A stretch of DNA of 64,000 nt, from contig NZ_CP028158.1 of NCBI RefSeq assembly GCF_003030345.1, forward strand, positions 6,262,001-6,326,000, written 5' to 3'. Positions 11,164-29,128 of this stretch are shown here, piece by piece (the first letter of the stretch is position 1; every line of letters begins with the position of its first letter). Under the pieces are notes generated by a model. It ran no database searches. It worked only from the letters and a program-made list of their open reading frames with translations, and had not been told where the DNA came from. A program made the position numbers and the translations under genes. This DNA comes from Plantactinospora sp. BC1 (GTDB lineage Bacteria > Actinomycetota > Actinomycetes > Mycobacteriales > Micromonosporaceae).

Positions 11164-13239
11164 TCAGCCCTGCCCAACGGCATGCTCGACAGCGGTTTCC
11201 CGGAGCACCGCGCAGCCGCCGGCCGGCAGCCGCACCGGGTCGACGTACTCGCCGCTGAGCAGGTCCAATCCGGACACCTCGACGGTCTGCGCCGCGTCGG
11301 TGTGGTTGAGCAGGAACAGCCAGCTCGTCCCGGCGGCGCAGCGGCGGACCGCCTCCACCCCGGCCGGCGCGACCGGGCAGGTCGGTTCCGCACCGGCCGC
11401 CGCCGCCACCCGGGCCAGCAGGTCGCGGTACGGGTCGTCGTCGAGCCGGGTGGAGAGATACCAGGCCACCCCGTCGCCGTACCCGTGCCGGGTCAGCGCC
11501 GGCTGGCCGTCGAGTGCTCCGCCGAGGTAGCTGACCGACGGCGTCGCACCGGTCAGGCGTACCGTCTCGGCCCAGAGCCGGCCGGTGCCGCCGTCCGAGA
11601 GCGGCAGCCGGGTGGCCGGGTCGAGCGGATGGAACTCCTCCACCCGGATCCCGAGCAGGTCGCGCAGCGCTCCCGGATAGCCGCCGACCCGGACCCGGGC
11701 GTGTTCGTCGGCGATCCCGCTGAAGTAGCTGACCAGCAGGTGACCGCCGGCCGCCACGTAGTCGCGGATCCGCGAGGCGTACCGGTCGGAGACCAGGTAG
11801 AGCGCCGGAAGCACCAGCAGGGCGTACCCGAAGAGGTCGTCGCCGTCGGTGACGAAGTCGCTCGGAACGCCGGCCCGGAACAGCGCCCGGTGCGCCGCCG
11901 CCACCTCGGCGGCGTAGTCGAGCTGCGCCGAGGGGAGCATGGTGGCCTGCAACGCCCACCAGCTGGCGGCGTCCCAGGCGATCGCCACCGGCGCCCGTAC
12001 CGTTCCGGCGTCCACTTCGGAGATCCGGTCGAGCAGCGCGCCGAGCGAGACCGCCTCGCGGAACGCCCGGCTGTCCGGGCCGGCGTGCGGGACGAGTGCG
12101 GAGTGGAAGACCTCCGCGCCGCCCCGGGAGGCCCGCCACTGGAAGAACATCGCCCCCCGGGACCCCCGGGCGACGTGCGCCAGGCTGTGCCGGGTCATCC
12201 GCCCCGGCTCCTTGGCGTGCATCCGGCCGGGGGTGAGGATCAGGTTCGGCGCGCTCTCCATCAGCAGCCAGGCCGGACCGCCGGGCGGGTTCCGGCCCTC
12301 CGGCGGGCCGGCGGCGCTCCGACCGGCCCGGCCGGTCCGCTGCCCGTGCCGGGCCCAGGACCGGGCCAGGTCGGCGGCGAACGCGGTCTGCTCCTCGGCG
12401 CCCGGCCCGACCTCGGCCGGATAGTGGTCGATCGCCACCAGGTCCACCTCGGCGGACCACCGGGCATGGTCCACCGGTACCCAGCCGCCGAGGACGTAGT
12501 TGGTGGTCACCGGTACGTCCGGGGTGGCGGCCCGGAGCAGGTCCCGCTGCTCGACGTACGCCGCCAGCAGCTCGTCGGAGACGAACCGGCGGAAGTCCAG
12601 CAGCTGGCTCGGGTTGCCCAGGTATTGCGTGGCCCGGGGCGGCCGGATCTGTTCCCAGCCCGAGTAGTGCTGGCTCCAGAAGCTGCCGGTCCACGCCTCG
12701 TTCAGTCGGTCGAGGTCACCGTAGCGGGCCCGCAGCCAGGCCCGGAACGCGACGGCGACGTGCTCGCAGTGGCAGGTGGTGCCGTACTCGTTGTGCACGT
12801 GCCAGAGCGCCAGCGCCGGATGGTCCCGGTAGCGGTCGGCGAGCGCGGCGGCGATCTCCCGGGCCGCCGCCCGGTACGCCGGGGCGCTGGCGCAGTAGGT
12901 GTCCCGGCTGCCGTGGCTGAGCCGTACCCCGTCGGCGGTGACCGGCAGCGCGTCCGGGTGCCGGAGCGAGAACCACGGCGGCGGGGAGGCGGTCGGGGTG
13001 GCCAGCGCCACCCGGATGCCGCCGTCGTGCAGCAGGTCGAGCACCCGGTCGAGCCAGTCGAAGTCGTACCGGCCGGGCTGTGGTTCGAGTCGGGACCAGG
13101 CGAAGACCCCGACGGTGACCAGGTTGACCCGGGCCCGCCGCATCAGCTCGACGTCGGTGGCCCAGACCTCCGCCGGCCACTGCTCCGGGTTGTAGTCACC
13201 GCCGTAGCAGAGCCCGGTCAGACCCTTCGGCCAGCGCAC
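11164..13239 (-). CDS. Beta-galactosidase, GH42
   Basis: 691-residue cytoplasmic glycosidase removing terminal beta-galactose. The N-terminus GLCYGGDYNPEQWP is typical of GH42. The acid/base Glu is E151 in HVHNEYG and the nucleophile is E328 in WLLMESAPN, both conserved. The trimerisation/Rossmann-like domain follows, and a C-terminal beta domain ends the protein. There is no signal peptide. The GTG at 13239 has a GAGAGG ribosome binding site upstream. It is divergent from GH95 and shares the operator-like site at 13284-13310. In this setting it probably removes galactose from xyloglucan oligosaccharides after defucosylation. Confidence 0.93.
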   Translation of the reverse strand: MRWPKGLTGLCYGGDYNPEQWPAEVWATDVELMRRARVNLVTVGVFAWSRLEPQPGRYDFDWLDRVLDLLHDGGIRVALATPTASPPPWFSLRHPDALPVTADGVRLSHGSRDTYCASAPAYRAAAREIAAALADRYRDHPALALWHVHNEYGTTCHCEHVAVAFRAWLRARYGDLDRLNEAWTGSFWSQHYSGWEQIRPPRATQYLGNPSQLLDFRRFVSDELLAAYVEQRDLLRAATPDVPVTTNYVLGGWVPVDHARWSAEVDLVAIDHYPAEVGPGAEEQTAFAADLARSWARHGQRTGRAGRSAAGPPEGRNPPGGPAWLLMESAPNLILTPGRMHAKEPGRMTRHSLAHVARGSRGAMFFQWRASRGGAEVFHSALVPHAGPDSRAFREAVSLGALLDRISEVDAGTVRAPVAIAWDAASWWALQATMLPSAQLDYAAEVAAAHRALFRAGVPSDFVTDGDDLFGYALLVLPALYLVSDRYASRIRDYVAAGGHLLVSYFSGIADEHARVRVGGYPGALRDLLGIRVEEFHPLDPATRLPLSDGGTGRLWAETVRLTGATPSVSYLGGALDGQPALTRHGYGDGVAWYLSTRLDDDPYRDLLARVAAAAGAEPTCPVAPAGVEAVRRCAAGTSWLFLLNHTDAAQTVEVSGLDLLSGEYVDPVRLPAGGCAVLRETAVEHAVGQG

Positions 13240-13283
13240 CCCGCCCCGCCTCTCCCGGCACACCCGCAACCGTCGCCGTTGAC

Positions 13284-13310
13284 CTTTGTTTGGGCTCCCG
13301 CCAAAGTAGG
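13284..13310. promoter_or_regulatory. ROK operator-like site A with GH95 promoter
   Basis: A 27-bp element matching the pattern TTTGTT-N2-G-N4-C-N5-AA-N-TA seen again at 15615 and 24151. It overlaps a promoter for GH95: TTGACC (13279-13284), 17 bases, CAAAGT (13302-13307), then seven bases to the GTG at 13315. Repressor bound here would shut GH95 and probably the divergent GH42. Confidence 0.65.
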
Positions 13311-13314
13311 CGGG

Positions 13315-15612
13315 GTGCATCCCCCTGTCAACGGCCTCGTCTCGACCAGCCGGACCGACGACTGGGAGGCGGCGCTGGTCAGCGGCAACGGCCGGCAGGG
13401 CGCGCTCTGCTACGGCGGGCCGGACGCCGTCCGGATCACCGTCTCGCACGAACGGCTCTTCCTGCCGCTGACCCCGCCGCTGGACCCGCCGCCGACCGCG
13501 CGGATCCTCGCCGAACTGCGGGCGCTGCTCACCGCGGGCGAACACCGGCGGGCCGCCGAGCGGGTGGCGGAGTTCGCCGCCGCGCACGATCCCGGGTACG
13601 CCGAGACCCGCTGGGTCGACCCGCTGGTCGGCGCGGCCACCCTCACCTGCACACCGGTCCCGGTCGACGCGGCGGGCGCGCGGTCGGGCAGCGCTGGGCC
13701 GGCGACCGGCTACCGGCGGAGCACCGACTTCGACACCGGGGTGGTGCGGCAGTCCTGGCGGTCGGCCGACGGGCCGGTCGAGGTGGCCGCCTTCGTGTCC
13801 CGCCCGCACGACGCGCTGGTCGTCCGGCTGACCGGGCCGACCGGCTGGCGGAGCACGCTCGCCCCGATCGACGGGGACCCGCCGGTACCGGTGCAGCGGC
13901 GGATCGCCCCCGACGGGCTGGGCCTGCGGGTGGAGTTCCCGGCCGCCACCGGCCGGCAGGTGACCGGGTACACGGTCCGGTGCCGGATGGTCGACGACAC
14001 GCTCCTGCTGCTGCGGACCACCGTGGACGGCGTACCGTCGCCGGGGCCGGACCTGGCGGAGCTGCCGGCGGACTTCGACGCGCTGCTGGCCGCACACGTC
14101 GCGGTGCACGGTGAGCTGGTCGGCCGGGTCCGGCTGGACCTCGACGGGTCGCCGGCCGCCCGGACCGCCACCTCCGAGGAGCTGCTGCGACCGTTCCGGC
14201 CGGAGGGCTCCGACGGCTCCGACGGCCCGGCCGAGCCCGCCGCGCCGGTCGGCAACGCCCTGGTGGAACGGCTCTTCGCGGCCGGCCGGTACGCGATCGT
14301 CTCCGCCAGCGGCGACCTGCCGCCGACCCTGCTCGGCGTCTGGAGCGGCAGTTACCGGCCGGCCTGGAGCGGCGGCTACACGCTGAACGGCAACCTGCCG
14401 GCCGCGCTGGCCGCGCTGGCGGTCACCGGCACCCCGGAACTGGTCGTCCCGCTCTTCGACCTGCTCGACTCGGTCGCCGACGACCTGGCCGGGAACGCCC
14501 GGCGGCTCTACGGTGCCGGCGGCATCCTCACCCCGACCCACCTGACCGGTCACGGCCGGCAGAACCACTTCGGTCCGGTCTGGTGCCAGACGTTCTGGAC
14601 CGCCGGGGCGGCCTGGTTGGCCCGGTTCTATCACGACCACTGGTGCCACACCGGGGACCGGACGTTCCTGCGGGAGCGGGCGCTGCCGTTCCTGCGCCGG
14701 GCCGCCGAGTTCTACCTCGACTTCGTGACCATCGACCCGGACGGCCGGGCCCGGTTCGTGCCGTCGTACTCCCCGGAGAACGCCGCGGCGAACACCGGCG
14801 CGCAGGCCAGCCTGGACGCCACGATGGACGTCGCGGCCGTCGCCGACCTGCTGCGCAACCTGCTGGCCGCGACGGCGGTGCTGGGCGAGCCCGACCCGGC
14901 CGAGCCGCGCTGGCGGGCCCTGCTGGCGGCGCTGCCGCCGTACCGGATCGCGCCGACCGGGGAACTCGCCGAGTGGATCGCCCCGGGACTGGTCGACAAC
15001 CACGCGCACCGGCACGCCTCGCAGCTCTATCCGCTCTGGTACGAGATCGATCCGGCGTTCGCCGCCGATCCGGCGCTGCGCCGGGCCGCCGCGCTGGCGA
15101 TCCGCCGCCGGCTGGCCTGGTGGCAGGGGGCGGAGTCGGACGAGATGGGGTACGGGCTGGCGCAGCTCGGCCTGGCGGCGGCCCGGCTCGGGCTGGCCGA
15201 GGAGGCGTACCGGACGGTGCTGCTGATGGCCGGCCGGTACTGGCGACCGAATCTGGTCTCCACGCACAACCGGGATGCGATCTTCAACCTGGACCTCTGT
15301 GGCGGACTGCCGGCCGTGGTCGCCGCCATGCTGCTGCGCAGCACCCTCGGTCCCGGCGACGAGCCGGCGATGCCGTCGGTCCGGTTGGACCTGCTGCCGG
15401 CGCTGCCGTCGGCCTGGCCCCGGGGCAGCGTCTCCGGCCTGCTCGCCCGGGGCCCGGTGACGGTGGCCCGACTGGCCTGGACATCGACACAGGTCGAGGC
15501 GTTGCTGATCTCCCCGGTCGACCGGACGGTCACCGTCGAGCTGCCCGGCGCGGCGCCGGTCCGGATCGGGCTGACGGCCGGCCGGACGCATCGACTACGG
15601 TCGCGCCGTTGA
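13315..15612 (+). CDS. Alpha-L-fucosidase, GH95
   Basis: 765-residue inverting glycosidase that releases alpha-1,2-linked fucose, the linkage at the tip of fucosylated xyloglucan side chains. An N-terminal beta-domain (starts near NGLVSTSRTDDWEAALVSGNGRQGALCYGG) precedes an (alpha/alpha)6 barrel with the conserved N-x-N pair (TLNGNLPAA) and SYSPEN carrying the catalytic Glu region. No signal peptide, so cytoplasmic. The GTG at 13315 is supported by a promoter whose -10 lies seven bases upstream, implying a leaderless mRNA. GH31 follows after 99 bases with its own promoter. Confidence 0.92.
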   Translation: MHPPVNGLVSTSRTDDWEAALVSGNGRQGALCYGGPDAVRITVSHERLFLPLTPPLDPPPTARILAELRALLTAGEHRRAAERVAEFAAAHDPGYAETRWVDPLVGAATLTCTPVPVDAAGARSGSAGPATGYRRSTDFDTGVVRQSWRSADGPVEVAAFVSRPHDALVVRLTGPTGWRSTLAPIDGDPPVPVQRRIAPDGLGLRVEFPAATGRQVTGYTVRCRMVDDTLLLLRTTVDGVPSPGPDLAELPADFDALLAAHVAVHGELVGRVRLDLDGSPAARTATSEELLRPFRPEGSDGSDGPAEPAAPVGNALVERLFAAGRYAIVSASGDLPPTLLGVWSGSYRPAWSGGYTLNGNLPAALAALAVTGTPELVVPLFDLLDSVADDLAGNARRLYGAGGILTPTHLTGHGRQNHFGPVWCQTFWTAGAAWLARFYHDHWCHTGDRTFLRERALPFLRRAAEFYLDFVTIDPDGRARFVPSYSPENAAANTGAQASLDATMDVAAVADLLRNLLAATAVLGEPDPAEPRWRALLAALPPYRIAPTGELAEWIAPGLVDNHAHRHASQLYPLWYEIDPAFAADPALRRAAALAIRRRLAWWQGAESDEMGYGLAQLGLAAARLGLAEEAYRTVLLMAGRYWRPNLVSTHNRDAIFNLDLCGGLPAVVAAMLLRSTLGPGDEPAMPSVRLDLLPALPSAWPRGSVSGLLARGPVTVARLAWTSTQVEALLISPVDRTVTVELPGAAPVRIGLTAGRTHRLRSRR

Positions 15613-15614
15613 CA

Positions 15615-15641
15615 GTTTGTTGGGTTACCAAAGAAACTAAG
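15615..15641 (+). promoter_or_regulatory. ROK operator-like site B with GH31 promoter
   Basis: Second copy of the 27-bp element, 71 bases upstream of the GH31 start and just after the GH95 stop. It overlaps TTGACA (15610-15615), 17 bases, GAAACT (15633-15638). It matches site A at 16 of 27 positions and site C at 17 of 27 by eye. Confidence 0.68.
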
Positions 15642-15711: not shown

Positions 15712-18057
15712 ATGCCGTACCGCCCGCCCCTGGTGCCGCACGAGACGTTCGTCGCCGACCCGCCCGACCTGCCGGTCCGGGCCCCGGGCGAGCACGGGCT
15801 CTCCGCACTGCACCGGGCCGAGGTGCTGAGCACGGACGGCCAGGGCGTGACCCTCAAGGCGTCCACCTCGGACGGCGGCTCGCTCGCGGTCCGGATCACC
15901 GCCGCCGCCGAGGGCGTCATCCGGGTACGGCTGAGCGAGGACCCGCTCGCCCGGGGCCGGGCCAGCCGGGCGCTGCCCCTGGTGCACCCCCAGCCGCACC
16001 GGGCCGAGGTACGCGTCGACGGCGACCGGGTCCGGGTCGACGCCGGGGCGGTGGTCGCCGAGCTGAGCCTCGACCCGTGGCACCTGCGCTTCGTCGACCC
16101 GACCGGCGCGGTACTGGTCAGCCAGAGCCGGGGCGAGCAGGACATCAGCGGCCGGCTGCGCACCCTGCCGTTCGGCCGGTCGCTGGTCGACGGCGCGGTC
16201 GCCGCCTACCACGAAAGTTTCGTGACCCCCGGCGACGAACGGTTCGTCGGGCTCGGCGAGAAGTTCACCCCGCTGGACAAGCGCGGCCAGCGCGCCCTGA
16301 TGTGGAACTTCGACGCCTTCGGCAGCGAGTCGGACCGCTCGCACAAGAACGTCCCGCTCTACCTCTCCAACCGGGGCTACGGGGTGCTGGTCGACAGCGG
16401 CATGCCGGTCGAGTTCGACATCTGCCAGTCCACGCACAGTTGCGTGCAGATCCTGGTGCCGGACGACCTGATCGACTACTACGTGATCGCCGGACCCACC
16501 CCGACGCAGATCCTGGACCGCTACGACCGGCTGACCAGCCGGCCGGCGCTGCCGCCGAAGTGGGCGTTCGGCGCCTGGATCTCCTCCGGCTTCTTCCGGG
16601 ACAGCCAGCAGCGGGTGCTGGAGCGGGCCCGGAAGATCCGCGAGCGCGGCATCCCCTGCGACGTGCTGCACCTGGACTGCTACTGGCAGGTCGCCGGGGC
16701 CTGGTCCGACCTGCGCTGGGACGCCGAGCAGTTCCCCGACCCGGCCGGCATGCTGGCCGAGCTGGCCGGACAGGGCTTCAAGGTCAGCCTCTGGATGAAC
16801 CCGTACGTGATGACCGGCAGCCCGCTCTACGCCGAGGCGGCCGAGGCCGGCTACTTCCTGCGCCGGGCCGACGGCTCGGTCTACGTCGCCGACACCTGGC
16901 ACGGCAGCCACCCGGCCGGCGGGATCGTCGACTTCACCAACCCGGCCGCGGTCGACTGGTTCACCGGGCTGCTCCGGCCGCTGCTGGAGCAGGGCGCCAG
17001 CGTCTTCAAGACCGACTTCGCCGAGGGGGTCCCGGCGGACGCGGTGGCACAGAACGGGATGACCGGCGTCGAGCTGCACAACGTCTACTCGCTGCTCTTC
17101 AACGACGTGGTGGTCAAGGTGACCCGGGAGGTGGCCGGGCACGGCACGGTGTGGGCCCGCTCGTCGTACCTGGGTGGGCAGCGGCACTCGGCACAGTGGA
17201 GCGGCGACGTGAACGCGACGTACCCGGCGCTGGCGAGCACGTTGCGCGGCGGGCTGAGCCACGGACTCTCCGGGGTGCCGTTCTGGAGCCACGACAGCGG
17301 CGGTTTCCACGGCACGCCGACGCCGGACCTCTACGTACGCTGGGCGCAGTTCGGGGCGTTCTCCCCGCTGGTCCGGTTCCACGGCACCACCAGCCGGCTG
17401 CCCTGGGACTTCCCGGCCGAGGCGGAACGGCTCGCGGTCGAGGCGCTGCGGCTGCGCTACCGGCTGATGCCGTACCTCTACTCGGCGGCAGTCACCTCGG
17501 CCCGGACCGGTGCGCCGATGATGCGGGCCCTGCTGGTCGACTCCCCCGACGACCCGGCCGCCTGGACGGCCGAGCTGGAATACCGGCTCGGCCCGGACCT
17601 GCTGGTGGCGCCGATGACCACTCCGGAGAACCGCCGGCACGTCTATCTGCCGGCCGGCGACTGGGTGGACTTCTGGACCGGCCAGGTGCACGCCGGTGGC
17701 CGGCACCTGCGGGTGCACCGGCCGCTGGACCAGGTCCCGCTCTTCGTCCGGTACGGCGCGCTGATCCCGGTGATGCCGCTGGCCGACCGGGTCGGCGACG
17801 GGGCCTTCTCCGACGTCACCGTGCTGAGCTTCGGCGCCACCGACGGCAGCACGGTGGTGCACGACATCGACGGCGACACCACGATCCGGGCGAGCCGGTC
17901 GGGCGACGAGTTCCGGGTGGAGGCCGACGGGCCGCTGCGGGTCAGCGGCGTCGCCCTCGCCCCGGTCGAGGGTGCCCGGCTGCCCGGGCGGCTGCTGCTG
18001 GGCGGTACCGCGACGAGCGCGGTGCCGCTGGACGGACTACCCACCGTGCGGGGTTGA
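15712..18057 (+). CDS. Alpha-xylosidase, GH31 (YicI-like)
   Basis: 781-residue cytoplasmic GH31 enzyme expected to remove alpha-1,6-xylose from xyloglucan oligosaccharides. The catalytic nucleophile is D435 in FKTDFAEG, matching the KTDFGE motif of E. coli YicI. Also seen are an N-terminal beta-sandwich, the WMNPYV and SHDSGGF substrate-site motifs and C-terminal beta domains. Length is close to YicI (772). ATG 15712 has GAGGAG upstream. It follows GH95 on the same strand and has its own operator-like site B. Confidence 0.92.
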   Translation: MPYRPPLVPHETFVADPPDLPVRAPGEHGLSALHRAEVLSTDGQGVTLKASTSDGGSLAVRITAAAEGVIRVRLSEDPLARGRASRALPLVHPQPHRAEVRVDGDRVRVDAGAVVAELSLDPWHLRFVDPTGAVLVSQSRGEQDISGRLRTLPFGRSLVDGAVAAYHESFVTPGDERFVGLGEKFTPLDKRGQRALMWNFDAFGSESDRSHKNVPLYLSNRGYGVLVDSGMPVEFDICQSTHSCVQILVPDDLIDYYVIAGPTPTQILDRYDRLTSRPALPPKWAFGAWISSGFFRDSQQRVLERARKIRERGIPCDVLHLDCYWQVAGAWSDLRWDAEQFPDPAGMLAELAGQGFKVSLWMNPYVMTGSPLYAEAAEAGYFLRRADGSVYVADTWHGSHPAGGIVDFTNPAAVDWFTGLLRPLLEQGASVFKTDFAEGVPADAVAQNGMTGVELHNVYSLLFNDVVVKVTREVAGHGTVWARSSYLGGQRHSAQWSGDVNATYPALASTLRGGLSHGLSGVPFWSHDSGGFHGTPTPDLYVRWAQFGAFSPLVRFHGTTSRLPWDFPAEAERLAVEALRLRYRLMPYLYSAAVTSARTGAPMMRALLVDSPDDPAAWTAELEYRLGPDLLVAPMTTPENRRHVYLPAGDWVDFWTGQVHAGGRHLRVHRPLDQVPLFVRYGALIPVMPLADRVGDGAFSDVTVLSFGATDGSTVVHDIDGDTTIRASRSGDEFRVEADGPLRVSGVALAPVEGARLPGRLLLGGTATSAVPLDGLPTVRG

Positions 18058-18103: not shown

Positions 18104-18117
18104 GGTGAGCGTCGAGG

Positions 18118-19590: not shown

Positions 19591-19595
19591 GCTGT

Positions 19596-19623
19596 CCTCC
19601 TGTCAGGTGACACCGACAGGAGG
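19596..19623 (-). promoter_or_regulatory. Hairpin sequestering the MFS ribosome binding site
   Basis: In the minus-strand mRNA CCTCCTGTC (19623-19615) pairs perfectly with GACAGGAGG (19604-19596), with a 10-base loop. The 3' arm contains the AGGAGG ribosome binding site of the MFS gene and the 5' arm acts as anti-Shine-Dalgarno. A likely -10 (TATCTG, in the operator just upstream) would start the transcript almost at the hairpin. Translation control by this hairpin is inferred. Confidence 0.55.
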
Positions 19624-19629
19624 GACCGT

Positions 19630-19659
19630 AACAGATAGTTCCGTTACAGACTATCTGTT
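19630..19659. promoter_or_regulatory. MarR operator-like palindrome before MFS gene
   Basis: Perfect 10-bp arms AACAGATAGT (19630-19639) and ACTATCTGTT (19650-19659) with a 10-base spacer. The inner part TTCCGTTAC with the following GA-TATCT recurs almost exactly at the marR promoter (20169-20190). It covers the expected MFS promoter, so it is probably the MarR target; a terminator for marR is a weaker alternative. Confidence 0.65.
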
Positions 19660-19665
19660 TGCGAT

Positions 19666-21172: not shown

Positions 21173-22380
21173 GATCTTGAGTACACTCCCCGCTCGCCGA
21201 GCGCGTGGGCGAACCGGTTGGCCGCCAGGATCAGCACCAGCCCGACCACGGCCTTGAACAGCCCGGCCGCCGCGCCGTACCCGTAGTTGCCGGTGGTGAT
21301 TGAGTTGTAGTAGACGAAGGTGTCCAGCACCTCGGCCGCCTGCCGCCCCACCGCGTCGCGTTGCAGCATGAACTGCTCGAAGCCGACCGAGAGCGCGTCA
21401 CCGAGCCGCAGGATCAGCAGCAGTACGATCACCGGCCGCAACCCGGGCAGCGTCACGTGCCAGAGCCGCTTCCACCGGCTCGCCCCGTCGACCGCCGACG
21501 CCTCGTAGAGGTGCGGGTCGATGGTGGAGAGCGCGGCCAGGAAGACGATCGTGCCCCAACCGACGTCCTTCCACACCGTCTCGGCGGTGACCAGCACGAT
21601 GAAGGTGTCCGGATTGGACATGATGTTCCAGGGTTCCAGCCCGACGTCGCGCATCTCCTGGGCGAGCAGCCCCGCCCCGCCGAACATCTGCACGAAGAAC
21701 GTGACCACCAGTACCCAGCTGAAGAAGTGCGGCAGATAGACCACGGTCTGCACGAATCCCCGCAGCCTCGGCGAGAGGATGTTGTGCAGCATGATCGCCA
21801 ACATGATCGGCAGCGGGAAGTAGAAGACGAGCTGGAACGCGGTGATCGCCAGGGTGTTGCGCAGCGCGTCCCAGAACGCCGGGTCGCCGAAGAGCGTCTC
21901 GAAGTGCGCCGTGCCGATCCACGGGCTGTGCAGGAAGGCCGCCAGCGGGGTGTCCCCGGCGTACGGGTTGTAGTCCTGAAACGCGACGACGTTGCCCAGC
22001 GTCGGCAGGTAGTGGAAGACCAGCAGCAGCAGGGCCGCCGGGGCCACCATCACCAGCAGCGGCCAGTCCCGGCGCAGCCGGGCCCGCAGCGGTGCCCGGT
22101 CGCGCCGCCGCGTCCGGGCCCGCCCGTGCCGCACCGGCTCCCGCCCCGGCCGGCCCGCCGGATCGGGGACCGGCCGGTCCGCCGCACGGCCGTCCCGGGA
22201 CTGCTGCGGCAGGCTCCGCGGACTCTCTGCGGGGCGGGGCGGCGCGGCGGTGGGACCGGCGAGCGCGGTCGGCTCGTCGAGCCGGCCGCCGGCCTTCGGG
22301 GTTGTCGGGGCGTACCCGCCGGGCGGGCGGCTCCGGTCGTCGCCGGTGCCACCCGCCCGGGCTGTTTCGCGGGTACTCAT
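21169..22380 (-). CDS. Carbohydrate ABC transporter permease (LplB/YteP type)
   Basis: 403-residue permease, the MalF-like partner. About 100 residues of Pro/Arg-rich, poorly conserved N-terminal tail precede the first membrane helix (LLVMVAPAALLLLVFHYLP). The EAA loop is EASAVDGASRWKRLWHVTLPG. The ATG at 22380 overlaps the stop of the binding-protein gene by four bases. The long charged tail is unusual in length; a later in-frame start would remove it, but overlap with the upstream stop favours this one. Confidence 0.89.
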   Translation of the reverse strand: MSTRETARAGGTGDDRSRPPGGYAPTTPKAGGRLDEPTALAGPTAAPPRPAESPRSLPQQSRDGRAADRPVPDPAGRPGREPVRHGRARTRRRDRAPLRARLRRDWPLLVMVAPAALLLLVFHYLPTLGNVVAFQDYNPYAGDTPLAAFLHSPWIGTAHFETLFGDPAFWDALRNTLAITAFQLVFYFPLPIMLAIMLHNILSPRLRGFVQTVVYLPHFFSWVLVVTFFVQMFGGAGLLAQEMRDVGLEPWNIMSNPDTFIVLVTAETVWKDVGWGTIVFLAALSTIDPHLYEASAVDGASRWKRLWHVTLPGLRPVIVLLLILRLGDALSVGFEQFMLQRDAVGRQAAEVLDTFVYYNSITTGNYGYGAAAGLFKAVVGLVLILAANRFAHALGERGVYSRS

Positions 22381-24056
22381 CGCCCGGCGTCGGCCAACGC
22401 CTTGGCGCGGAACTCCCGGGCCTCGTCACCGCCGCCGTTGCGCCACTCGGTGATGATCGTGTCGAGGTCGCTCATCGGCCGGCGACCGCGCAGCAGGTCG
22501 GTCACCTTGTCGTCGGTCGGCGACAGGCTCGCCTTGAACCGGGCCGGCATCTCCAGCTTCAGTCCCGACCAGGGGTCCTTCTCCAGGTACTTCACCATCT
22601 CGTTGGAGTAGGTCAACATGTCCCGGACGTAGTTCGGGGTCTGCGGGAACGGCTGCACCACCGGGCTGCGCCCGCTGATGAAGAAGTACTGGTTGACGAT
22701 CTCCTTGAAGCCGAGGTCGGTCTTGACCGGGCCGGTCGCGGTCCGGTTGTGGTGCTTGCCCTCCACCCCGTACTCGCGCAGGTCGAACTCCTTGGTGCCG
22801 AAGGGTGCCGAGCACCAGTTGATCACCCGCAGCAGTTCCTCCACCCGGGCCTTGCCCAGCCCCTTCTTGATGAAGGTGTACGAGATCGGGTTGTCGTCGC
22901 CCCAGACCAGCGGGTCACCGCCGGTGGCCGAGAAGATCGGCACGGGCTGGATGTTGAAGCCGGGGGTGATCCGCTGCTGCTCGGCCTGCATCGCCTGCCA
23001 GGCGCCCGGACCGTCCTGGAAGAAGATGATCCTGCCGCTCTGGATCAGCTGCTTGGAGTCGGCGCCCTTGCTGGCCACCAGGTCGGGGTGGACCAGACCG
23101 GCCTGGTAGACCTTGGCCATGAACTCGACGGACTGCTTGTATTCCGGCGTCTCGTACTTGAACTCCGGGGTGCCGTCCGACTTCAGCCGCCAGCCGTCGT
23201 CGGTGCCCGGCACCTTGTGGAACATCTGGACCATCGCGAAGATGTCGTTGAACGCCCAGACCCCCTTGCCGGGGTCGGTCACCTTCTTGCCGACCTCGAA
23301 GAGTTCCTCGATCGTCTTCGGATAACCGAGCCCGGCGGCGTCGAGCAGGTCCTTGCGGTAGAAGAGCGCCCAGGGGAACGGCCCGTCCTTGGGGCAGGGC
23401 ACCGCCATCAGTCGCTCGTTCCAGAACGCGTTGCGCCAGGCCCCGGCCGGGAAGGTGGCCAGCATCGGGTACGGGTCGATCCCGGCGCCCTTGAGGTGGT
23501 CGGTGAGGTCCTCGAAGAGCGCGGCGGTGGCGTCGGCGAACCGCGGCAGCTTGGAGACCTCCCACTCCGGTACGCAGAGCAGGTCCGGTACGTCGCGGGC
23601 GCCGAGCATGGCGTTGAGCTTGTCGGCGTACGTGTTGCCGTCCTGGACGCTGAAGTTGACCTCGACGCCCAGCTCGGCGTTCACCGCCGCGAGGTACTGG
23701 CTCTGGCCGAGTCCGGGCGGAGCCGGCCCCCAGGCCGGGGTCATCGCGCTGATGCGCTGGCCGCTGGTGCCGGGCTTGTCGGTGATGGCGTCGACCAGCG
23801 TGCTCGGGAACTCGGTGTAGCCGTCCGGCACCGGGCGGGTGCCGACGATGCTCGGCTTGGGGATGCCGGGCGGCAGGTCCTTCTGGTTGGGCAGCAGGCC
23901 GGCGAGCTTGTCCAGGTTCTGCGCGCTGCTGGTGGAGGCCACCTCGCCGCCGCAGCCGGCGAGCAGGCCACTGCCGACGGTCGCCGCGGCACCGAGGCCC
24001 ACCAGGCTCAGGAAGTTCCTACGGTTGGTGGCGCTGCCCGGGCCGGATGGTTGCAC
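22377..24056 (-). CDS. Extracellular sugar-binding lipoprotein of ABC importer
   Basis: 559-residue solute-binding protein. The N-terminus has a twin-arginine motif (RRNFLSLVG) followed by a hydrophobic stretch and lipobox LLAGC, so it is probably exported folded by Tat and lipid-anchored. It is long for the family and resembles LipO/YtcQ-type proteins that bind large oligosaccharides. The GTG at 24056 has GGGAG upstream. First gene of the operon, preceded by operator-like site C. The likely ligand is a xyloglucan oligosaccharide, by context only; YtcQ-type proteins also serve rhamnogalacturonan fragments. Confidence 0.9.
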   Translation of the reverse strand: MQPSGPGSATNRRNFLSLVGLGAAATVGSGLLAGCGGEVASTSSAQNLDKLAGLLPNQKDLPPGIPKPSIVGTRPVPDGYTEFPSTLVDAITDKPGTSGQRISAMTPAWGPAPPGLGQSQYLAAVNAELGVEVNFSVQDGNTYADKLNAMLGARDVPDLLCVPEWEVSKLPRFADATAALFEDLTDHLKGAGIDPYPMLATFPAGAWRNAFWNERLMAVPCPKDGPFPWALFYRKDLLDAAGLGYPKTIEELFEVGKKVTDPGKGVWAFNDIFAMVQMFHKVPGTDDGWRLKSDGTPEFKYETPEYKQSVEFMAKVYQAGLVHPDLVASKGADSKQLIQSGRIIFFQDGPGAWQAMQAEQQRITPGFNIQPVPIFSATGGDPLVWGDDNPISYTFIKKGLGKARVEELLRVINWCSAPFGTKEFDLREYGVEGKHHNRTATGPVKTDLGFKEIVNQYFFISGRSPVVQPFPQTPNYVRDMLTYSNEMVKYLEKDPWSGLKLEMPARFKASLSPTDDKVTDLLRGRRPMSDLDTIITEWRNGGGDEAREFRAKALADAGR

Positions 24057-24150: not shown

Positions 24151-24177
24151 GTTAGTTCGTCGGTTGACTAAACAAAC
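24151..24177. promoter_or_regulatory. ROK operator-like site C between ABC operon and ROK gene
   Basis: Third copy of the 27-bp element, read on the minus strand (GTTTGTTTAGTCAACC then GACGAACTAAC). It lies in the divergent promoter region of the binding-protein gene and the ROK gene, 94 bases from the former, as expected for an autoregulating ROK repressor. Its sequence resembles published ROK/XylR-type sites built on TTAGT and ACTAA half-sites. Confidence 0.7.
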
Positions 24178-24258: not shown

Positions 24259-25740
24259 ATGATGGGCGCACCGTCGGCAACCGGCGCGACACGGGGCCCG
24301 GAGACCGAAACGCGGGGAGCGGGGCTGATCTTGTTCACGACGCAGACCGGGCCACAGCCGGCCGATCTCGCCGACGTACGGGCCACGAATCTCGCCGTCG
24401 TCCTGCGCTTCGTCCGGACGCACGCGCCCTGCTCACGCGCTGACATCGCCGCCTCGACCGGGTTGAACAAGGCGACCGTCTCCAGCCTGGTCGCCGAGTT
24501 GCTCGACCGGCGTCTGGTCCGGGAGACCGGCCTGGCCGAGAACCGGATCGGCCGTCCCGCCACCATGCTGGTGGTCGACGGCGCCCCGTACGCGGCGATC
24601 GGCATCGAGGTGAGCATCGACGAGCTGACGGTGGTCGCCGTCGACCTCGCCGGCACCGAACTGCTCTCCTGGCGACGCGCCTTCGACGGCTCGTCCGCCT
24701 CCCCCGGCCGGGCGGTCAGCGCGATCGCGGCGCTCGCCGGCCGGGCCGTCAACCGGGTCGGCGGCCAGGGCCGGGAGGTGCTCGGCCTCACCGTCGCGGT
24801 CCCCGGCCTGGTCGACGCCGGTGGCACCGTCCGGCTCGCCACCACCCTCGGCTGGCGTGACCTGCCGCTCGGCGCCGACCTGCGCCGTGCGCTGCGCGAC
24901 CCCGGCTACGAGGTGGTGGTGGACAACGACGCCAACCTCGCCGCCCTCGCCGAATACCGGCACGGTCCGCAGGCCGGCACCGCCAACCTGGTGCACCTGA
25001 CCGGCGGCGCCGGGCTCGGCGCGGGGGTGGTCGCCGACGGCCGGCTGCTGCGCGGCGGACGCGGCTTCGCCGGCGAGCTGGGGCACGTACCGGTCGAACC
25101 GGACGGTCCGCTCTGTCCGTGCGGCCGGCGCGGCTGCCTGGAGGTGGTGGCCGGCATTCCGGCGCTGATCCGCCGGGCGCTGCCGGACGCGGCCGAGGAC
25201 GGCCCGGTCACCGACTTCGCCCCCGAGGTCGACCGGATCCGCACCAAGGCCCGCCGGGGTGACCGCGCCACCCTCGACGCGCTGGCCGAGATCGGCCGGC
25301 ACCTGGGCCGGGGCGTCGCGTTGCTGGCGAACCTGGTCAACCCCGAGGTCGTCCTGCTCGGCGGCTATTACGCGACGCTGGCACCGTGGCTGCTCCCCGC
25401 CGCCGAGGCCGAACTGCACGCCCACACGCTGGCTCCGGAGGCCGGCGGGGCCCGGCTGCTCGCCTCGGCCCTGGGCACCGGCGCGGCGGCGTCCGGTGGG
25501 GCGGCCCGGACGCTGGAGACCGTGGACGCCGGTCGGTTGCCGCTGCGCGACCCGGACCGTGGCGCCGCCCGTGAGCCGGGCCCGTCGGCCCGGGTCTCCC
25601 GGAAGACCCCCACCCGGTCCAGTACCGCACCCGGCGACCCGGAGCCGGAGGCGAAGGCCGATCCGGCCGCCGCGCAGGCGTCCGCCCCGCCGGAACCGCA
25701 GCCCACCGACCCGCCACGGCAACCGGCCGCCCAGCGCTGA
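24259..25740 (+). CDS. ROK-family transcriptional repressor
   Basis: Up to 493 residues. An N-terminal winged helix (SRADIAASTGLNKATVSSLVAELLDRRLVRE) is followed by the ROK sugar-sensing fold with VDNDANLAALAE, the GELGHVPVE loop and the zinc motif CPCGRRGCLE. It probably senses a sugar released from the imported oligosaccharide (xylose, glucose or similar) and represses via sites A-C. The start is uncertain: ATG 24259 and TTG 24331 are in frame, and the conserved region begins near FTTQTGPQPADL, which favours the later one. The last 90 residues are low-complexity Pro/Ala/Glu and not part of the fold. Confidence 0.9.
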   Translation: MMGAPSATGATRGPETETRGAGLILFTTQTGPQPADLADVRATNLAVVLRFVRTHAPCSRADIAASTGLNKATVSSLVAELLDRRLVRETGLAENRIGRPATMLVVDGAPYAAIGIEVSIDELTVVAVDLAGTELLSWRRAFDGSSASPGRAVSAIAALAGRAVNRVGGQGREVLGLTVAVPGLVDAGGTVRLATTLGWRDLPLGADLRRALRDPGYEVVVDNDANLAALAEYRHGPQAGTANLVHLTGGAGLGAGVVADGRLLRGGRGFAGELGHVPVEPDGPLCPCGRRGCLEVVAGIPALIRRALPDAAEDGPVTDFAPEVDRIRTKARRGDRATLDALAEIGRHLGRGVALLANLVNPEVVLLGGYYATLAPWLLPAAEAELHAHTLAPEAGGARLLASALGTGAAASGGAARTLETVDAGRLPLRDPDRGAAREPGPSARVSRKTPTRSSTAPGDPEPEAKADPAAAQASAPPEPQPTDPPRQPAAQR

Positions 25741-25936: not shown

Positions 25937-25950
25937 TCGAAGCGCTTCGA
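25937..25950. promoter_or_regulatory. LacI-type operator 1 of GH3 gene
   Basis: TCGAAGCGCTTCGA, a perfect 14-bp palindrome with central CG, 131 bases upstream of the GH3 start. Identical to the second site 67 bp further on. Confidence 0.72.
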
Positions 25951-26003: not shown

Positions 26004-26017
26004 TCGAAGCGCTTCGA
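26004..26017. promoter_or_regulatory. LacI-type operator 2 of GH3 gene
   Basis: A second perfect copy of TCGAAGCGCTTCGA, centred 67 bp after the first and 64 bases before the GH3 start codon. Two identical sites on roughly the same DNA face suit a looping tetramer or cooperative dimers of the LacI protein encoded after GH3. Confidence 0.72.
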
Positions 26018-26080: not shown

Positions 26081-29000
26081 ATGACCGACCCGACGTTCCG
26101 CGACCCCGACCAGCCGCTCGACGTACGCGTCGCCGACCTGCTCGGCCGGCTCAGCCGGGCGGAGAAGATCGCGCTGCTGCACCAGCACCAGGCCCCGGTG
26201 CCCCGACTCGGGCTGCCGGCGTTCCGCACCGGCACCGAGGCGTTGCACGGGCTGGCCTGGCTCGGCCCGGCCACGGTCTTCCCGCAGGCGCTCGGGCTCG
26301 GCAGCACCTGGAACCCCGAACTGATCCGGGCCGTCGGCGCGGCGGTCGGCGACGAGGTGCGGGGCCTGCACCAGAAGGACCCGACCCGGGTCGGGCTGAA
26401 CGTCTGGGCGCCGGTGGTCAACCCGCTGCGCGACCCCCGCTGGGGCCGCAACGAGGAGGGCTACGCCGAGGACCCCTGGTTGACCAGTTGGCTCGGCACG
26501 GCGTACGCCCGGGGACTGCGCGGCGACCACCCCGACTACCTGAAGACCGCGCCGACGCTGAAGCACTTCCTCGGCTACAACAACGAGACCGACCGGTGCA
26601 CCACGTCGAGCAACCTGCCGCCCCGGGTGCTCTACGAATACGAGCTGCCCGCGTTCCGGGCCCCCATCGCCACCGGGGCGGCGGTGGCCGTGATGGCCTC
26701 CTACAACCTGGTCAACGGCCGGCCGGCACACCTGAGCCCGTTGATCGGCACCGAGCTGCGCCGCTGGACCAGTGACGAGATCCTGGTGGTCAGCGACGCC
26801 GGTGCGGTCTCCAACATCGCCGGTGCGCAGGGCTACCACCCCGACCACCCCAGTGGGTACGCCGCCGCGCTGCGGGCCGGCATCGACAGCTTCACCGAGG
26901 ACAGCGAGGACCCCGGGCCCACCGTCGAGCGGCTCACCGAGGCGCTGCGGCGCGGACTGCTCGACGAGTCCGACCTGGACACGGCGGTACGGCGGATCCT
27001 CACCGTCCGGTTCCGGCTCGGCGACCTCGACCCGCCCGAGCGGAACCCGTACACGGCGATCACGGCAGACGTGATCAACTGCCCGGCACACCAGGAGCTG
27101 GCCCGGGAGGCCGCCCGGCAGTCGCTGGTGCTGCTCCGCAACGTACCCCGGCCCGGCACCGGGGCGCTGCTGCCGCTGGACCCGGGCCGGATCGGCCGGC
27201 TGGCCGTACTCGGGCCGCTCGCCGACACGCTCTACGAGGACTGGTACAGCGGCACCCTGCCGTACGCGATCACCGCCCGCGACGGGCTGGCCGCCCGGTT
27301 CGCCCCGGCGAGCACGCCGCACCACTGCGGTGCGGACCGGATCGCGCTGCGCACCGCCGACGGCTACGTCCGGGCCGCCGGTGACCCGGAGGGCGCGCCG
27401 CTGCGCCTGGCGGTCGGCCCGGAGCCGGCGCCGGGCGGCGTCGCCATCCCGGACGGCAGGGTCGGGCCGCCGGAGGATGCCGCCGGGCCGCCCGGGGCCG
27501 GCGGCGGCACGGCCCAGGGCGACACGACCGGGCCGGTGCCGCAGGACGGCTGGTTCGAGGTCTTCGACTGGGGCCAGGACGTCGTCGCGCTGCGCAGCGT
27601 GGCCAACGGCCGGCACGTCGGCGCCGACGAGGCGGGCCTGCTGGTCAACGACCGGCCCGGCCCGGGCGGCTGGGTGGTCCGGGAGACGTTCCGGCTGGTC
27701 GACCGGGACACCGGCGACCGGGTGCTGCACCACCTGGCCAGCGGACGCTACGTCCGGGTCGGTCCGGACGGGGTGCTCCGGGCCGACGCGGTCGCCCCCG
27801 CCGACGGTACCGGTTTCACCGTCGAACTGGTCGCCGACGGTGCGGCCGAGGCGGCGGCGCTGGCCCGGGACGCCGACGTCGCCGTCGTGGTGCTCGGCAA
27901 CCACCCGATGGTCTGCGGCCGGGAGACCGAGGACCGGGCCGACCTGGCCCTGCCGAAGGCGCAGGAGGCGCTGCTCCGGGCGGTCCACGCGGCCAACCCG
28001 CGTACCGTGCTGGTGGTCAGCAGCAGCTACCCGTACGCGCTGAACTGGGCCGACGAGCACCTGCCGGCGATCGTATGGTCGGCGCACGGCGGTCAGGAGT
28101 ACGGCGCCGCGCTGGCGGCCGTGCTCGCCGGGGACGCCGACCCGGGCGGCCGGCTGACCCAGACCTGGTACCACGACGCCGCCAGACTGCCGGACCTCTT
28201 CGACTACGACGTGATAGCCACCGACACCACCTATCTCTACCATCGGGGCACCCCGCTCTATCCGTTCGGCCACGGGCTGAGCTACGCCGAATTCGCCTAC
28301 TCCGACCTGCGGCTGAGCGCGGACGAGGTGGACGCGGCCGGGGAGGTCGAGGTCAGCGTGCGGGTGACCAACGTCGGTTCGCGGCCGGGCGACGAGGTGG
28401 TCCAGCTCTACACCCGACAGCGGCGGTCCCGGGTCAAGCAGCCGCTGCGCCAGCTCCGCGGCTTCGCCCGGGTGAGCCTGGCCCCGGGCGCGCAGACCAC
28501 GGTACGGCTGCGGCTGCGCGCCAGCGAGTTGGCGCACTGGGACGTGACCCGGGGCCGGTACGTGGTGGAGGACGCCCGGCACACCGTCGCGGTCGGCCGG
28601 TCCAGTGCCGACCTGGTGTTGACCGCCACCCTGGCGGTGCACGGTGAGCCGGTGCGTCCCCGCGCGGCGCTGGCCGGCCCACTCCGCGCAACCGACCACG
28701 ACGAGTACGCCGGCACCGAGCCGCTGCCGGACGGCCCGGACGGCGCGGCGGTGGTCGCCCGGGAGGCGGGCGGCTGGATCCGCTTCTCCCGGGTCGACTT
28801 CGGTGCCGGGGTACGCGGCGTCACCGCCCGGGTCGGTGCCGAGCGACCGCTGCCGGACGGGGCCGAGCTGCTGCTCCGGCTGGACGACCCGGTCCGGGGT
28901 CCGGTGGCCGGCACGGTCGCCATCCCACCGGTCGTCGACCCGGAACCGGGCGACGGCGCGGCGCCGAACGGCGAGGTGACCGGCGACTGGCGCGGCGGGG

Positions 29001-29128
29001 CGACCGGGGTACGGGATCTGTACCTGCTCTTCGACTCCCCCGGCGCTACGGTGAGCTGGTTGACCTTCGTGGCCGGTGCGGACGGCCCGGACGCGGACGC
29101 TGCCGGGACGGGAAGTGGAGGCGCCTAG
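26081..29128 (+). CDS. Intracellular GH3 beta-glucosidase/xylosidase with inserted beta-trefoil-like domain
   Basis: 1015-residue GH3 enzyme without a signal peptide. The (beta/alpha)8 domain carries the nucleophile D239 in VVSDAGAVS. The second domain is split: residues about 425-580 form an insert with a Gly-rich linker and a fascin/ricin-like pattern (VALRSVANGRHVGADEAG, LASGRYVRVGPDGVL), after which the GH3 sandwich resumes (VAVVVLGNHPMVCGRETEDR). A fibronectin-III-like domain and about 170 residues of extra C-terminal beta-rich sequence follow. It likely degrades the backbone of imported oligosaccharides; glucosidase or xylosidase activity is not resolved. The TAG stop overlaps the GTG of lacI by one base. 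Confidence 0.9.
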   Translation: MTDPTFRDPDQPLDVRVADLLGRLSRAEKIALLHQHQAPVPRLGLPAFRTGTEALHGLAWLGPATVFPQALGLGSTWNPELIRAVGAAVGDEVRGLHQKDPTRVGLNVWAPVVNPLRDPRWGRNEEGYAEDPWLTSWLGTAYARGLRGDHPDYLKTAPTLKHFLGYNNETDRCTTSSNLPPRVLYEYELPAFRAPIATGAAVAVMASYNLVNGRPAHLSPLIGTELRRWTSDEILVVSDAGAVSNIAGAQGYHPDHPSGYAAALRAGIDSFTEDSEDPGPTVERLTEALRRGLLDESDLDTAVRRILTVRFRLGDLDPPERNPYTAITADVINCPAHQELAREAARQSLVLLRNVPRPGTGALLPLDPGRIGRLAVLGPLADTLYEDWYSGTLPYAITARDGLAARFAPASTPHHCGADRIALRTADGYVRAAGDPEGAPLRLAVGPEPAPGGVAIPDGRVGPPEDAAGPPGAGGGTAQGDTTGPVPQDGWFEVFDWGQDVVALRSVANGRHVGADEAGLLVNDRPGPGGWVVRETFRLVDRDTGDRVLHHLASGRYVRVGPDGVLRADAVAPADGTGFTVELVADGAAEAAALARDADVAVVVLGNHPMVCGRETEDRADLALPKAQEALLRAVHAANPRTVLVVSSSYPYALNWADEHLPAIVWSAHGGQEYGAALAAVLAGDADPGGRLTQTWYHDAARLPDLFDYDVIATDTTYLYHRGTPLYPFGHGLSYAEFAYSDLRLSADEVDAAGEVEVSVRVTNVGSRPGDEVVQLYTRQRRSRVKQPLRQLRGFARVSLAPGAQTTVRLRLRASELAHWDVTRGRYVVEDARHTVAVGRSSADLVLTATLAVHGEPVRPRAALAGPLRATDHDEYAGTEPLPDGPDGAAVVAREAGGWIRFSRVDFGAGVRGVTARVGAERPLPDGAELLLRLDDPVRGPVAGTVAIPPVVDPEPGDGAAPNGEVTGDWRGGATGVRDLYLLFDSPGATVSWLTFVAGADGPDADAAGTGSGGA

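What the first reader, a model, noticed from the sequence alone, without database searches (positions are those of the whole stretch)
11164..29128. Candidate intracellular xyloglucan side-chain utilisation island
GH42 beta-galactosidase, GH95 alpha-fucosidase and GH31 alpha-xylosidase lie together with an oligosaccharide ABC importer, a ROK repressor and a GH3 enzyme. These are exactly the activities needed, in order, for the Fuc-Gal-Xyl-Glc side chain of fucosylated xyloglucan. None of the four glycosidases has a signal peptide, so the whole oligosaccharide would be imported by the Tat-lipoprotein system and dismantled inside. Most described xyloglucan loci (Bacteroidetes, Cellvibrio, Ruminiclostridium) are built differently.
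Basis: partly seen in the sequence, partly recalled or inferred. Interest (0 to 1): 0.72.

Follow-up and report, generated by a model that had tools for sequence, protein, structure and literature searches.

The report
Xyloglucan sugar import and digestion regulon
A plant-associated soil actinobacterium carries a conserved, jointly controlled gene set that appears to cut the plant polymer xyloglucan outside the cell, import the fragments and take them apart inside; the general plan is known from another bacterium, but the predicted switch and the oxidative enzymes tied to it look new.

Summary
The gene list is correct. The window, from a Plantactinospora, holds GH42, GH95, YicI-like GH31, an ABC importer with a Tat-lipoprotein binding protein, ROK, GH3 and LacI; the MFS/MarR pair between them looks like a bystander.

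The strongest new evidence is regulatory. A palindrome, TTWGTTY-N7/N11-RAACWAA, lies at the GH42/GH95, GH31 and importer/ROK promoters. In the whole genome its best remote copies precede a GH74 xyloglucanase, two GH12s (the one compared is closest to the xyloglucanase NopAA) and two AA10 LPMOs. It lies upstream of GH31 in 77 of 80 orthologous loci, against 16 of 1441 control windows. GH74 is a neighbour in 15 of those 80.

So xyloglucan is well supported from sequence. Corrections: Ruminiclostridium cellulolyticum already uses GH42+GH31+GH3+ABC in the cytosol. GH3 has its own LacI-type operator and unsettled specificity. Fucose versus L-galactose for GH95 is untested, and GH95 is missing in two sister species, deleted in P. 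mayteni. 22 of 31 locus-bearing relatives searched lack a close GH31 ortholog. Verdict: new variant of a known kind; no biochemistry or expression data.

The parts
11164..13239 (-). GH42 beta-galactosidase gene (GTG start), cytosolic
   Evidence: Pfam GH42 425.8 bits with M and C domains; best PDB sequence matches are beta-galactosidases; no hydrophobic N-terminus
13285..13309 (.). ROK-type operator, N11 spacing, 2 mismatches, between GH42 and GH95
13315..15612 (+). GH95 alpha-L-fucosidase/alpha-L-galactosidase family gene, cytosolic, accessory
   Evidence: Pfam 225.1 bits; N358/N360, E488, D660 and T356 aligned to the Xanthomonas GH95
15616..15640 (.). ROK-type operator, N11, 1 mismatch, upstream of GH31
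   Evidence: a site (N7 or N11, <=2 mismatches) lies within 250 bp upstream in 77 of 80 GH31 orthologs
15712..18057 (+). GH31 YicI-type alpha-xylosidase gene, cytosolic
   Evidence: YicI best, 450.9 bits; F294, D322-C323-Y324-W325, W331, W361, D435, D499 aligned to YicI
20237..21172 (-). ABC permease 2
   Evidence: Pfam BPD_transp_1; found in 27 of 30 loci
21169..22380 (-). ABC permease 1
   Evidence: Pfam BPD_transp_1; found in 27 of 30 loci
22377..24056 (-). Tat-lipoprotein solute-binding protein of the ABC importer
   Evidence: Pfam SBP_bac_1/8; NRRNFLSL and LAGC; 26 of 30 loci
24152..24176 (.). ROK-type operator, N11, 0 mismatches, SBP/ROK divergent promoter
   Evidence: upstream of ROK in 26 of 26 relatives with a ROK hit at <=1 mismatch
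24259..25740 (+). ROK-family regulator with winged-helix N-terminus; proposed repressor of the regulon
   Evidence: Pfam ROK and MarR_2; 25 of 30 loci
25937..25950 (.). LacI-type operator TCGAAGCGCTTCGA, copy 1, upstream of GH3
26004..26017 (.). LacI-type operator TCGAAGCGCTTCGA, copy 2, upstream of GH3
   Evidence: exact copy upstream of GH3 in 23 of 23 relatives with a GH3 hit
26081..29128 (+). GH3 gene, cytosolic; beta-glucosidase or beta-xylosidase or isoprimeverose-type, unresolved
   Evidence: Pfam GH3 N, C and Fn3-like; PDB matches of all three kinds
29128..30255 (+). LacI-family regulator overlapping the end of GH3
   Evidence: Pfam LacI/Peripla_BP_3; shared base 29128
18118..20154 (-). 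MFS + MarR pair: lies inside the island but judged not part of the system
   Evidence: no ROK site at its promoter; a MarR hit in only 3 of 80 GH31 loci, all Plantactinospora

Best explanation
This is the import and cytosolic half of a xyloglucan utilisation regulon. GH74 and GH12 endo-xyloglucanases, encoded elsewhere in the genome with secretion-type N-termini and helped by two AA10 LPMOs, cut cell-wall xyloglucan into oligosaccharides. The Tat-lipoprotein binding protein and two permeases, using a shared ATPase, import the oligosaccharides whole. Inside, GH95 removes terminal alpha-1,2-L-fucose (or L-galactose), GH42 removes the exposed beta-1,2-galactose, GH31 removes the non-reducing-end alpha-1,6-xylose, and a beta-glucosidase (the LacI-controlled GH3 is the candidate) trims backbone glucose, in cycles. 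A ROK protein represses the importer, GH42, GH95, GH31, itself and the secreted enzymes through TTWGTTY-N7/N11-RAACWAA palindromes, and is released by a breakdown sugar, probably xylose or a xylose-bearing fragment. Shown here by sequence: families, catalytic residues of GH95 and GH31, synteny, operator sites and their conservation, regulon membership. Inferred: that ROK is the protein that binds the sites, its effector, ligand of the binding protein, shared ATPase, substrate linkage of each enzyme, and the role of GH3.
For: Only 3 places in the 64-kb window carry the operator, at the GH42/GH95, GH31 and SBP/ROK promoters. In the 8.33-Mb genome the N11 form has 5 places at <=2 mismatches (reversed-pattern control 3), 3 of them these. 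The N7 form has 15 places (control 6); 5 of the 12 remote ones lie upstream of GH12, CBM2-GH12, GH74-CBM2, AA10 and AA10-CBM2, and these five score best among the remote N7 sites on an 18-position consensus. GH74 matches structures named xyloglucanase at up to 1147 bits. The own GH12 at C1:4393679 and two relatives match NopAA best (own: 153 bits against 84 for the next), reported as xyloglucan-specific (PMC7303141). GH12 upstream regions carry the site in 14 of 30 loci against 0 of 30 downstream controls. GH31: 77 of 80 against 16 of 1441 control windows. GH74 lies in the fetched flanks (up to 10 kb) of the GH31 ortholog in 15 of 80 loci; one Phytomonospora has GH74, GH42, GH31, permeases, SBP and ROK together. 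GH12 sits beside the locus in 3 of 30 relatives. The same cytosolic GH42/GH31/GH3 set is proven in R. cellulolyticum (PMC4780118).
Against: No expression, binding or enzyme data. 22 of 31 genomes searched lack a close GH31 ortholog; 21 of these have only a 39-44% paralog. In genus g30 (my 'Actinoplanes-like') the N7 site is absent at GH74 in 12 of 12 loci seen. The GH74 site also occurs in 6 of 10 genomes where no close GH95 was found, so it does not track GH95. The GH12 site is missing in 16 of 30 GH12 loci, mostly the more distant ones. GH3 has no ROK site and its best PDB match is named beta-xylosidase. GH53 neighbours occur in 3 of 30 GH95-centred loci and GH53 hits in 14 of 80 GH31 loci. 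An AA10 from Kitasatospora did not cleave xyloglucan (PMC6509861).
Confidence: 0.83

Rival explanations
1. The locus serves complex glucuronoarabinoxylan side chains: GH95 as alpha-L-galactosidase, GH31 as xylan alpha-xylosidase, GH3 as beta-xylosidase, GH42 for terminal galactose.
For: Bacteroides ovatus uses GH95 and GH31 this way, beside GH3 (PMC4491172); its GH95 (4ufc) is the second-best PDB sequence match of ours; the best GH3 match is named beta-xylosidase; GH10 sits near 2 of 30 loci.
Against: Of the 13 remote operator places 5 lie upstream of GH74/GH12/AA10 genes; around the other 8 I recognised no xylanase, but judged those neighbours by eye from N-termini only. GH74 is a recurrent neighbour of GH31, while the GH10 reference gave no hit in the 80 loci (GH11, GH43 and GH30 were not in the reference set).
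Confidence: 0.06
2. The locus serves rhamnogalacturonan-I or type I galactan: GH42 as the main enzyme with a secreted PL11 or GH53.
For: PL11-CBM2 lies next door at 6693-9149 and is kept beside GH42 in Plantactinospora and Phytohabitans loci; GH53 neighbours occur in some relatives.
Against: No ROK site near PL11 at <=2 mismatches, N7 or N11. The GH42 next to GH53 in most of the GH53-bearing Streptosporangiaceae loci is a 45-48% paralog. GH31 and GH74 have no known role in this pathway (recalled).
Confidence: 0.05
3. Xyloglucan is right, but GH95 is not a fucosidase of xyloglucan; it removes L-galactose or acts on another glycan, and the ancestral system handles only non-fucosylated xyloglucan.
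For: Thr at the -1 position as in the L-galactosidase. Of 80 GH31 loci only 9 have the close GH95; two Plantactinospora loci lack it.
Against: XacAfc95 also has Thr and is fucose-specific in a xyloglucan locus (PMC8245568). GH95 starts at the shared operator with GH42 and lies directly upstream of GH31.
Confidence: 0.2
4. GH3 is an isoprimeverose-producing enzyme, so breakdown proceeds through isoprimeverose, which GH31 then splits.
For: GH3 matches entries named isoprimeverose-producing (21ji, 5yot) at 244 and 233 bits. R. cellulolyticum Xyl31A hydrolyses isoprimeverose.
Against: Entries named beta-glucosidase and beta-xylosidase score equally or better.
Confidence: 0.12

Closest known systems
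Xyloglucan oligosaccharide utilisation locus of Ruminiclostridium cellulolyticum (Ccel_2451-2458; PMC4780118)
   Same: ABC importer (SBP + 2 permeases, no ATPase gene nearby), cytosolic GH42, GH31 and GH3, separate secreted GH74
   Different: two-component sensor/AraC-type regulator instead of ROK and LacI; GH95 encoded in the genome but not named in its cluster in the parts I read; cellulosomal endo-enzymes instead of free GH74/GH12/AA10
Xanthomonas XyGUL (PMC8245568)
   Same: GH95 + GH31 + GH74 set for fucosylated xyloglucan
   Different: TonB-dependent uptake, GH35 instead of GH42, CE20 esterase, GH74 inside the locus
Thermotoga maritima gloR-gloEFGKL-cel74-fucAI cluster (PMC3750489)
   Same: predicted xyloglucan-oligosaccharide ABC importer with cel74 and a fuc gene, repressor-controlled
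   Different: LacI-family GloR (and CelR), no GH42/GH31 named in the passages seen
Bacteroides ovatus PUL-XylL (PMC4491172)
   Same: GH95, GH31 and GH3 together
   Different: targets complex arabinoxylan; GH31 and GH95 periplasmic

Membership tests
Gram-positive ABC-type xyloglucan oligosaccharide locus (R. cellulolyticum type) | Lipoprotein SBP + two permeases, no ATPase gene in the locus | tested here: met
Gram-positive ABC-type xyloglucan oligosaccharide locus (R. cellulolyticum type) | GH42, GH31 and GH3 genes without signal peptides | tested here: met
   (hydropathy only)
Gram-positive ABC-type xyloglucan oligosaccharide locus (R. cellulolyticum type) | Coordinated with secreted xyloglucanase | tested here: inconclusive
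   shared operator at GH74 and GH12 and GH74 neighbour in 15 of 80 loci speak for it; expression not tested
Gram-positive ABC-type xyloglucan oligosaccharide locus (R. cellulolyticum type) | Two-component sensor and AraC-type regulator in the cluster | tested here: not met
   ROK and LacI regulators instead
Gram-positive ABC-type xyloglucan oligosaccharide locus (R. cellulolyticum type) | SBP binds XXXG; genes induced by xyloglucan | not testable with these tools
   needs ITC and transcript data
GH95 | Catalytic Asn pair, general acid Glu, conserved Asp | tested here: met
   N358/N360, E488, D660 by alignment
GH95 | alpha-1,2-L-fucosidase rather than alpha-L-galactosidase | tested here: inconclusive
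   T356 is found in both kinds
GH31 YicI-type alpha-xylosidase | Aligned YicI pocket positions (Phe, Asp-Cys-aromatic-Trp, Trp, Trp) and two catalytic Asp | tested here: met
   alignment; the roles of these positions in YicI are recalled, not looked up
ROK-family repressor | N-terminal winged helix + ROK domain, palindromic operator at its own promoter | tested here: met
   binding itself not testable
Xanthomonas-type XyGUL | TonB-dependent transporters and GH35 | tested here: not met
   (ABC and GH42 instead)

The most novel reading that the evidence does not exclude
In Micromonosporaceae and Streptosporangiaceae one ROK repressor with a two-spacing (N7/N11) operator runs the whole xyloglucan programme, secreted GH74, GH12 and AA10 LPMOs included. 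The two AA10 LPMOs would then be xyloglucan-induced oxidases acting on xyloglucan-coated cellulose, a role I did not see for AA10 in the one listing and one paper I looked at, and GH95 would be a gain/loss switch between fucosylated and plain xyloglucan use among close relatives.
Probability: 0.35. Interest if true: 0.62.

Novelty: new variant of a known kind. Interest (0 to 1): 0.46.

Why it matters
Secreted xyloglucanases of soil actinobacteria are known (recalled), but the listings of my searches showed no paper that assigns them an importer, a cytosolic pathway or a regulator (open-licence papers only). This gives a concrete, testable regulon with named promoters, proposes a substrate for an ABC importer conserved in Micromonosporaceae, and links AA10 LPMOs to a hemicellulose programme. 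Strains with and without GH95 in one genus offer a natural test of what the fucosidase contributes.

Tried and rejected
Arabinoxylan, RG-I and galactan readings were considered and set low because operator sites fall at GH74/GH12/AA10 genes and not at PL11, nor at any xylanase I recognised. The Thr/His position in GH95 was considered as a specificity test and dropped because a fucose-specific enzyme has Thr. A structure of the binding protein was predicted but mean pLDDT was 51.7, so no fold search was made. Eight remote operator places with poor palindromes or an odd form (942188, 3385244, 3385396, 3570335, 4061286, 4841940, 5161280, 2085625) were looked at and taken as background, though five of them (942188, 3385244, 3570335, 5161280, 2085625) also lie within about 310 bp of a gene start; their neighbours were judged by eye, not scanned against Pfam. 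The first GH12 operator count (13 of 30) used wrong gene positions for two loci cut by contig ends; one search mends it to 14 of 30.
Full report
What is there. The window is G000:C1:6262001-6326000 of an 8.33-Mb single-contig genome. Pfam confirms GH42, GH95, GH31, two ABC permeases, a solute-binding protein, ROK and GH3, plus a MFS/MarR pair inside the stretch and a LacI gene overlapping the end of GH3. The 1475/1476-aa ORFs are opposite frames covering two divergent genes; GH42 starts at 13239 and GH95 at 13315. None of the four glycosidases has a clearly hydrophobic N-terminus; the binding protein has a Tat motif and lipobox. Catalytic residues are in place: in GH95, N358/N360, E488 and D660 align with the Xanthomonas xyloglucan fucosidase; in GH31, D435 and D499 and the YicI pocket residues align.

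Conservation. Of 200 family genomes, 146 match GH95 at E <= 1e-30. In the listed places 32 genomes, the own one and one fragment (G033) included, have a close (>= 54%) ortholog; the other listed matches are 32-42% paralogs, and the list was cut. I took 30 of the 32 for stretches of up to 20 kb, leaving out the own genome and G033. Among these 30, called genes give permease 2 and permease 1 in 27 each, SBP in 26, ROK in 25, GH3 in 23 and GH31 in 7 (genes at contig or stretch ends are missed, so these are lower bounds). GH12 sits beside the locus in 3 of 30, GH53 in 3, GH10 in 2 (clusters named from one member each). A close GH31 ortholog exists in 9 of 31 genomes (the own one and 8 at 63-93%); of the other 22, 21 have only a 39-44% paralog and one incomplete genome has none at E <= 1e-60. 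One genome (G035) has GH42-GH31-ABC-ROK-GH3 without GH95, with GH95 elsewhere. In a named collection, 172 relatives of GH31 were found and the best 80 kept. Within their flanks, hits at any identity are: GH3 in 70, GH42 in 58, ROK in 33, GH95 in 22 (only 9 close, 49-77%), SBP in 17, GH74 in 15, GH53 in 14, GH12 in 1, AA10 and GH10 in none. In Nonomuraea and Phytomonospora GH74 is a neighbour; Phytomonospora endophytica (L281) has GH74, GH42, GH31, an MFS, permeases, SBP and ROK in one stretch.

The operator. Comparing SBP/ROK intergenic regions gave a palindrome TTWGTTY-N11-RAACWAA. In the window it occurs at three places only: 13285 (GH42/GH95), 15616 (just before GH31) and 24152 (SBP/ROK). 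In the 30 relatives' stretches there are 23, 11 and 24 sites at 0, 1 and 2 mismatches; the reversed pattern gave none at <= 2 in these and 30 more loci. The site lies upstream of ROK in 26 of 26 relatives with a ROK hit (<= 1 mismatch), and upstream of GH95 (N7 or N11, <= 2 mismatches) in 18 of 30. A tighter N7 spacing is used too: 11 relatives' loci carry a perfect N7 site, in the positions I checked between GH42 and GH95, and 11 of 30 GH95 upstream regions hold a perfect N7 or N11 site. For GH31, 77 of 80 orthologs have a site (<= 2 mismatches) within 250 bp upstream, against 16 of 1441 control windows from the same loci.

The regulon. In the whole own genome the N11 form has 5 places at <= 2 mismatches (reversed-pattern control 3); three are those in the window. 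The N7 form has 15 (control 6). Together there are 13 distinct remote places. Five of them lie 33-303 bp upstream of the called starts of CBM2-GH12, GH12, AA10, AA10-CBM2 and GH74-CBM2; the AA10-CBM2 site also faces a divergent gene. On an 18-position consensus these five score 15-17; the other seven remote N7 sites score 12-14. The eighth leftover place (2085625, N11) lies by a gene that looks by eye like another regulator and a transporter, and may belong to that. GH74 matches the xyloglucanase Gly74A at 1147 bits. The own GH12 at C1:4393679 and the relatives L118 and L039 match NopAA best, reported as active almost only on xyloglucan (PMC7303141, abstract and passages); the own CBM2-GH12 was not compared itself. 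GH12 upstream regions in 30 loci carry a site in 14 (<= 2 mismatches): 10 of the 12 with >= 73% identity to the L039 GH12, 3 of 3 Plantactinospora CBM2-GH12, 1 of the 15 others; downstream controls 0 of 30 (which mends). In a relative, G193, a site lies upstream of an AA10 gene too. This is the main reason for assigning xyloglucan.

Results against. GH74 upstream regions (30 loci seen of 36 genomes with a match, 41 searched): an N7 site at <= 2 mismatches occurs in 7 of 20 genomes that have the close GH95 and in 6 of 10 where no close GH95 was found; counting N11 as well it is 9 of 20 and 7 of 10. So the GH74 site does not track GH95. In g30 it is 0 of 12 for N7 (2 of 12 with a poor N11). Most g30 genomes also lack the GH31 ortholog, so there the locus may work with another alpha-xylosidase or serve a somewhat different ligand. 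GH53 or GH10 genes sit near a few relatives' loci. An AA10 of Kitasatospora did not cleave xyloglucan (PMC6509861, passages).

GH3 and LacI. Two exact copies of TCGAAGCGCTTCGA precede GH3 (25937, 26004). They are the only exact copies in the genome; at one mismatch there are two more places, and the reversed-pattern control gives 7 at <= 1 mismatch. An exact copy precedes GH3 in 23 of 23 relatives with a GH3 hit, although a LacI gene was seen in only 4 of 30 of these stretches. GH3 and the LacI gene overlap and look like a separate unit. By sequence GH3 is closest to an entry named beta-xylosidase, then beta-glucosidases and isoprimeverose-producing enzymes. Its place as the backbone beta-glucosidase is a guess from synteny and from R. 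cellulolyticum.

GH95 as an accessory. P. mayteni (L209) keeps about the first 54 and the last 38 bases of the GH95 gene and both flanking operators, but not the middle: an internal deletion. P. alkalitolerans (L211) lacks it as well. P. endophytica (L210) and the window have it. Presence thus varies inside one genus.

How it most likely works. Secreted GH74/GH12, with AA10 help, release oligosaccharides; SBP and permeases import them; GH95, GH42, GH31 and a beta-glucosidase act in that order, as shown for GH42, GH31 and GH3 in R. cellulolyticum (PMC4780118, sections 8 and 9). ROK represses all but GH3. Shown here by sequence: operator, synteny, families, residues. Inferred: binding, effector, ligand, linkages; secretion of the remote enzymes is read by eye from their N-termini.

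What is known. The R. cellulolyticum locus has the same importer plan (no ATPase gene) and the same three cytosolic families, with GH74 elsewhere, but a two-component system (PMC4780118: abstract, sections 8, 9, part of 23 and passages; XygS/XygR is named in a reference of PMC8579813, passages). That paper says comparable clusters occur in other Gram-positive bacteria, and its figure legend mentions alpha-fucosidase genes. T. maritima has a predicted LacI-controlled gloEFGKL-cel74-fucAI cluster (PMC3750489, passages). Xanthomonas pairs GH95, GH35, GH31 and GH74 with TonB transport (PMC8245568, passages). B. ovatus uses GH95 and GH31 on corn xylan (PMC4491172, passages). The listings of searches showed no paper on an actinobacterial ROK xyloglucan regulon; the library holds open-licence papers only, and I did not open most of the listed papers.

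Verdict. It is a new variant of a known kind, widened here to a predicted genome-wide regulon.

Noticed in passing
L209 (P. mayteni), L211 (P. alkalitolerans) versus window 13256-15575: GH95 is missing from otherwise colinear loci; in P. mayteni both gene ends and both operators remain, so it was deleted.
   Followed up: partly
window 6693-9149 (-): PL11 rhamnogalacturonan lyase with CBM2 stays next to GH42 in Plantactinospora and Phytohabitans loci, yet has no ROK-type operator.
   Followed up: partly
window 26081-29128: GH3 C-terminal domain has a long insert (about residues 430-590) that looks beta-trefoil-like by eye, plus a weak CBM6 match; odd for a cytosolic enzyme.
   Followed up: no
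L169 (own genome C1:322000-336000): The xyloglucan-operator AA10 gene lies in a cluster with GH62-CBM2, GH27, GH127 and AbfB-domain genes.
   Followed up: no
L241-L288 (mostly Streptosporangiaceae): The GH31 ortholog is often followed by a different ABC importer (about 30% to ours), a different GH3 (43-50%) and in Nonomuraea GH74: a parallel solution under the same operator.
   Followed up: partly
L214-L233 (13 Micromonospora-group loci): A different GH95 (31-42% identical) sits in the fetched stretch beyond the GH3-LacI end of the locus, perhaps replacing the window's GH95.
   Followed up: no
L120, site at own genome C1:2085625: A TTAAGTTTCG...CGAAACTAA palindrome lies between a binding-protein-like gene and a regulator-like gene (by eye); perhaps the operator of another, related regulator.
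   Followed up: no
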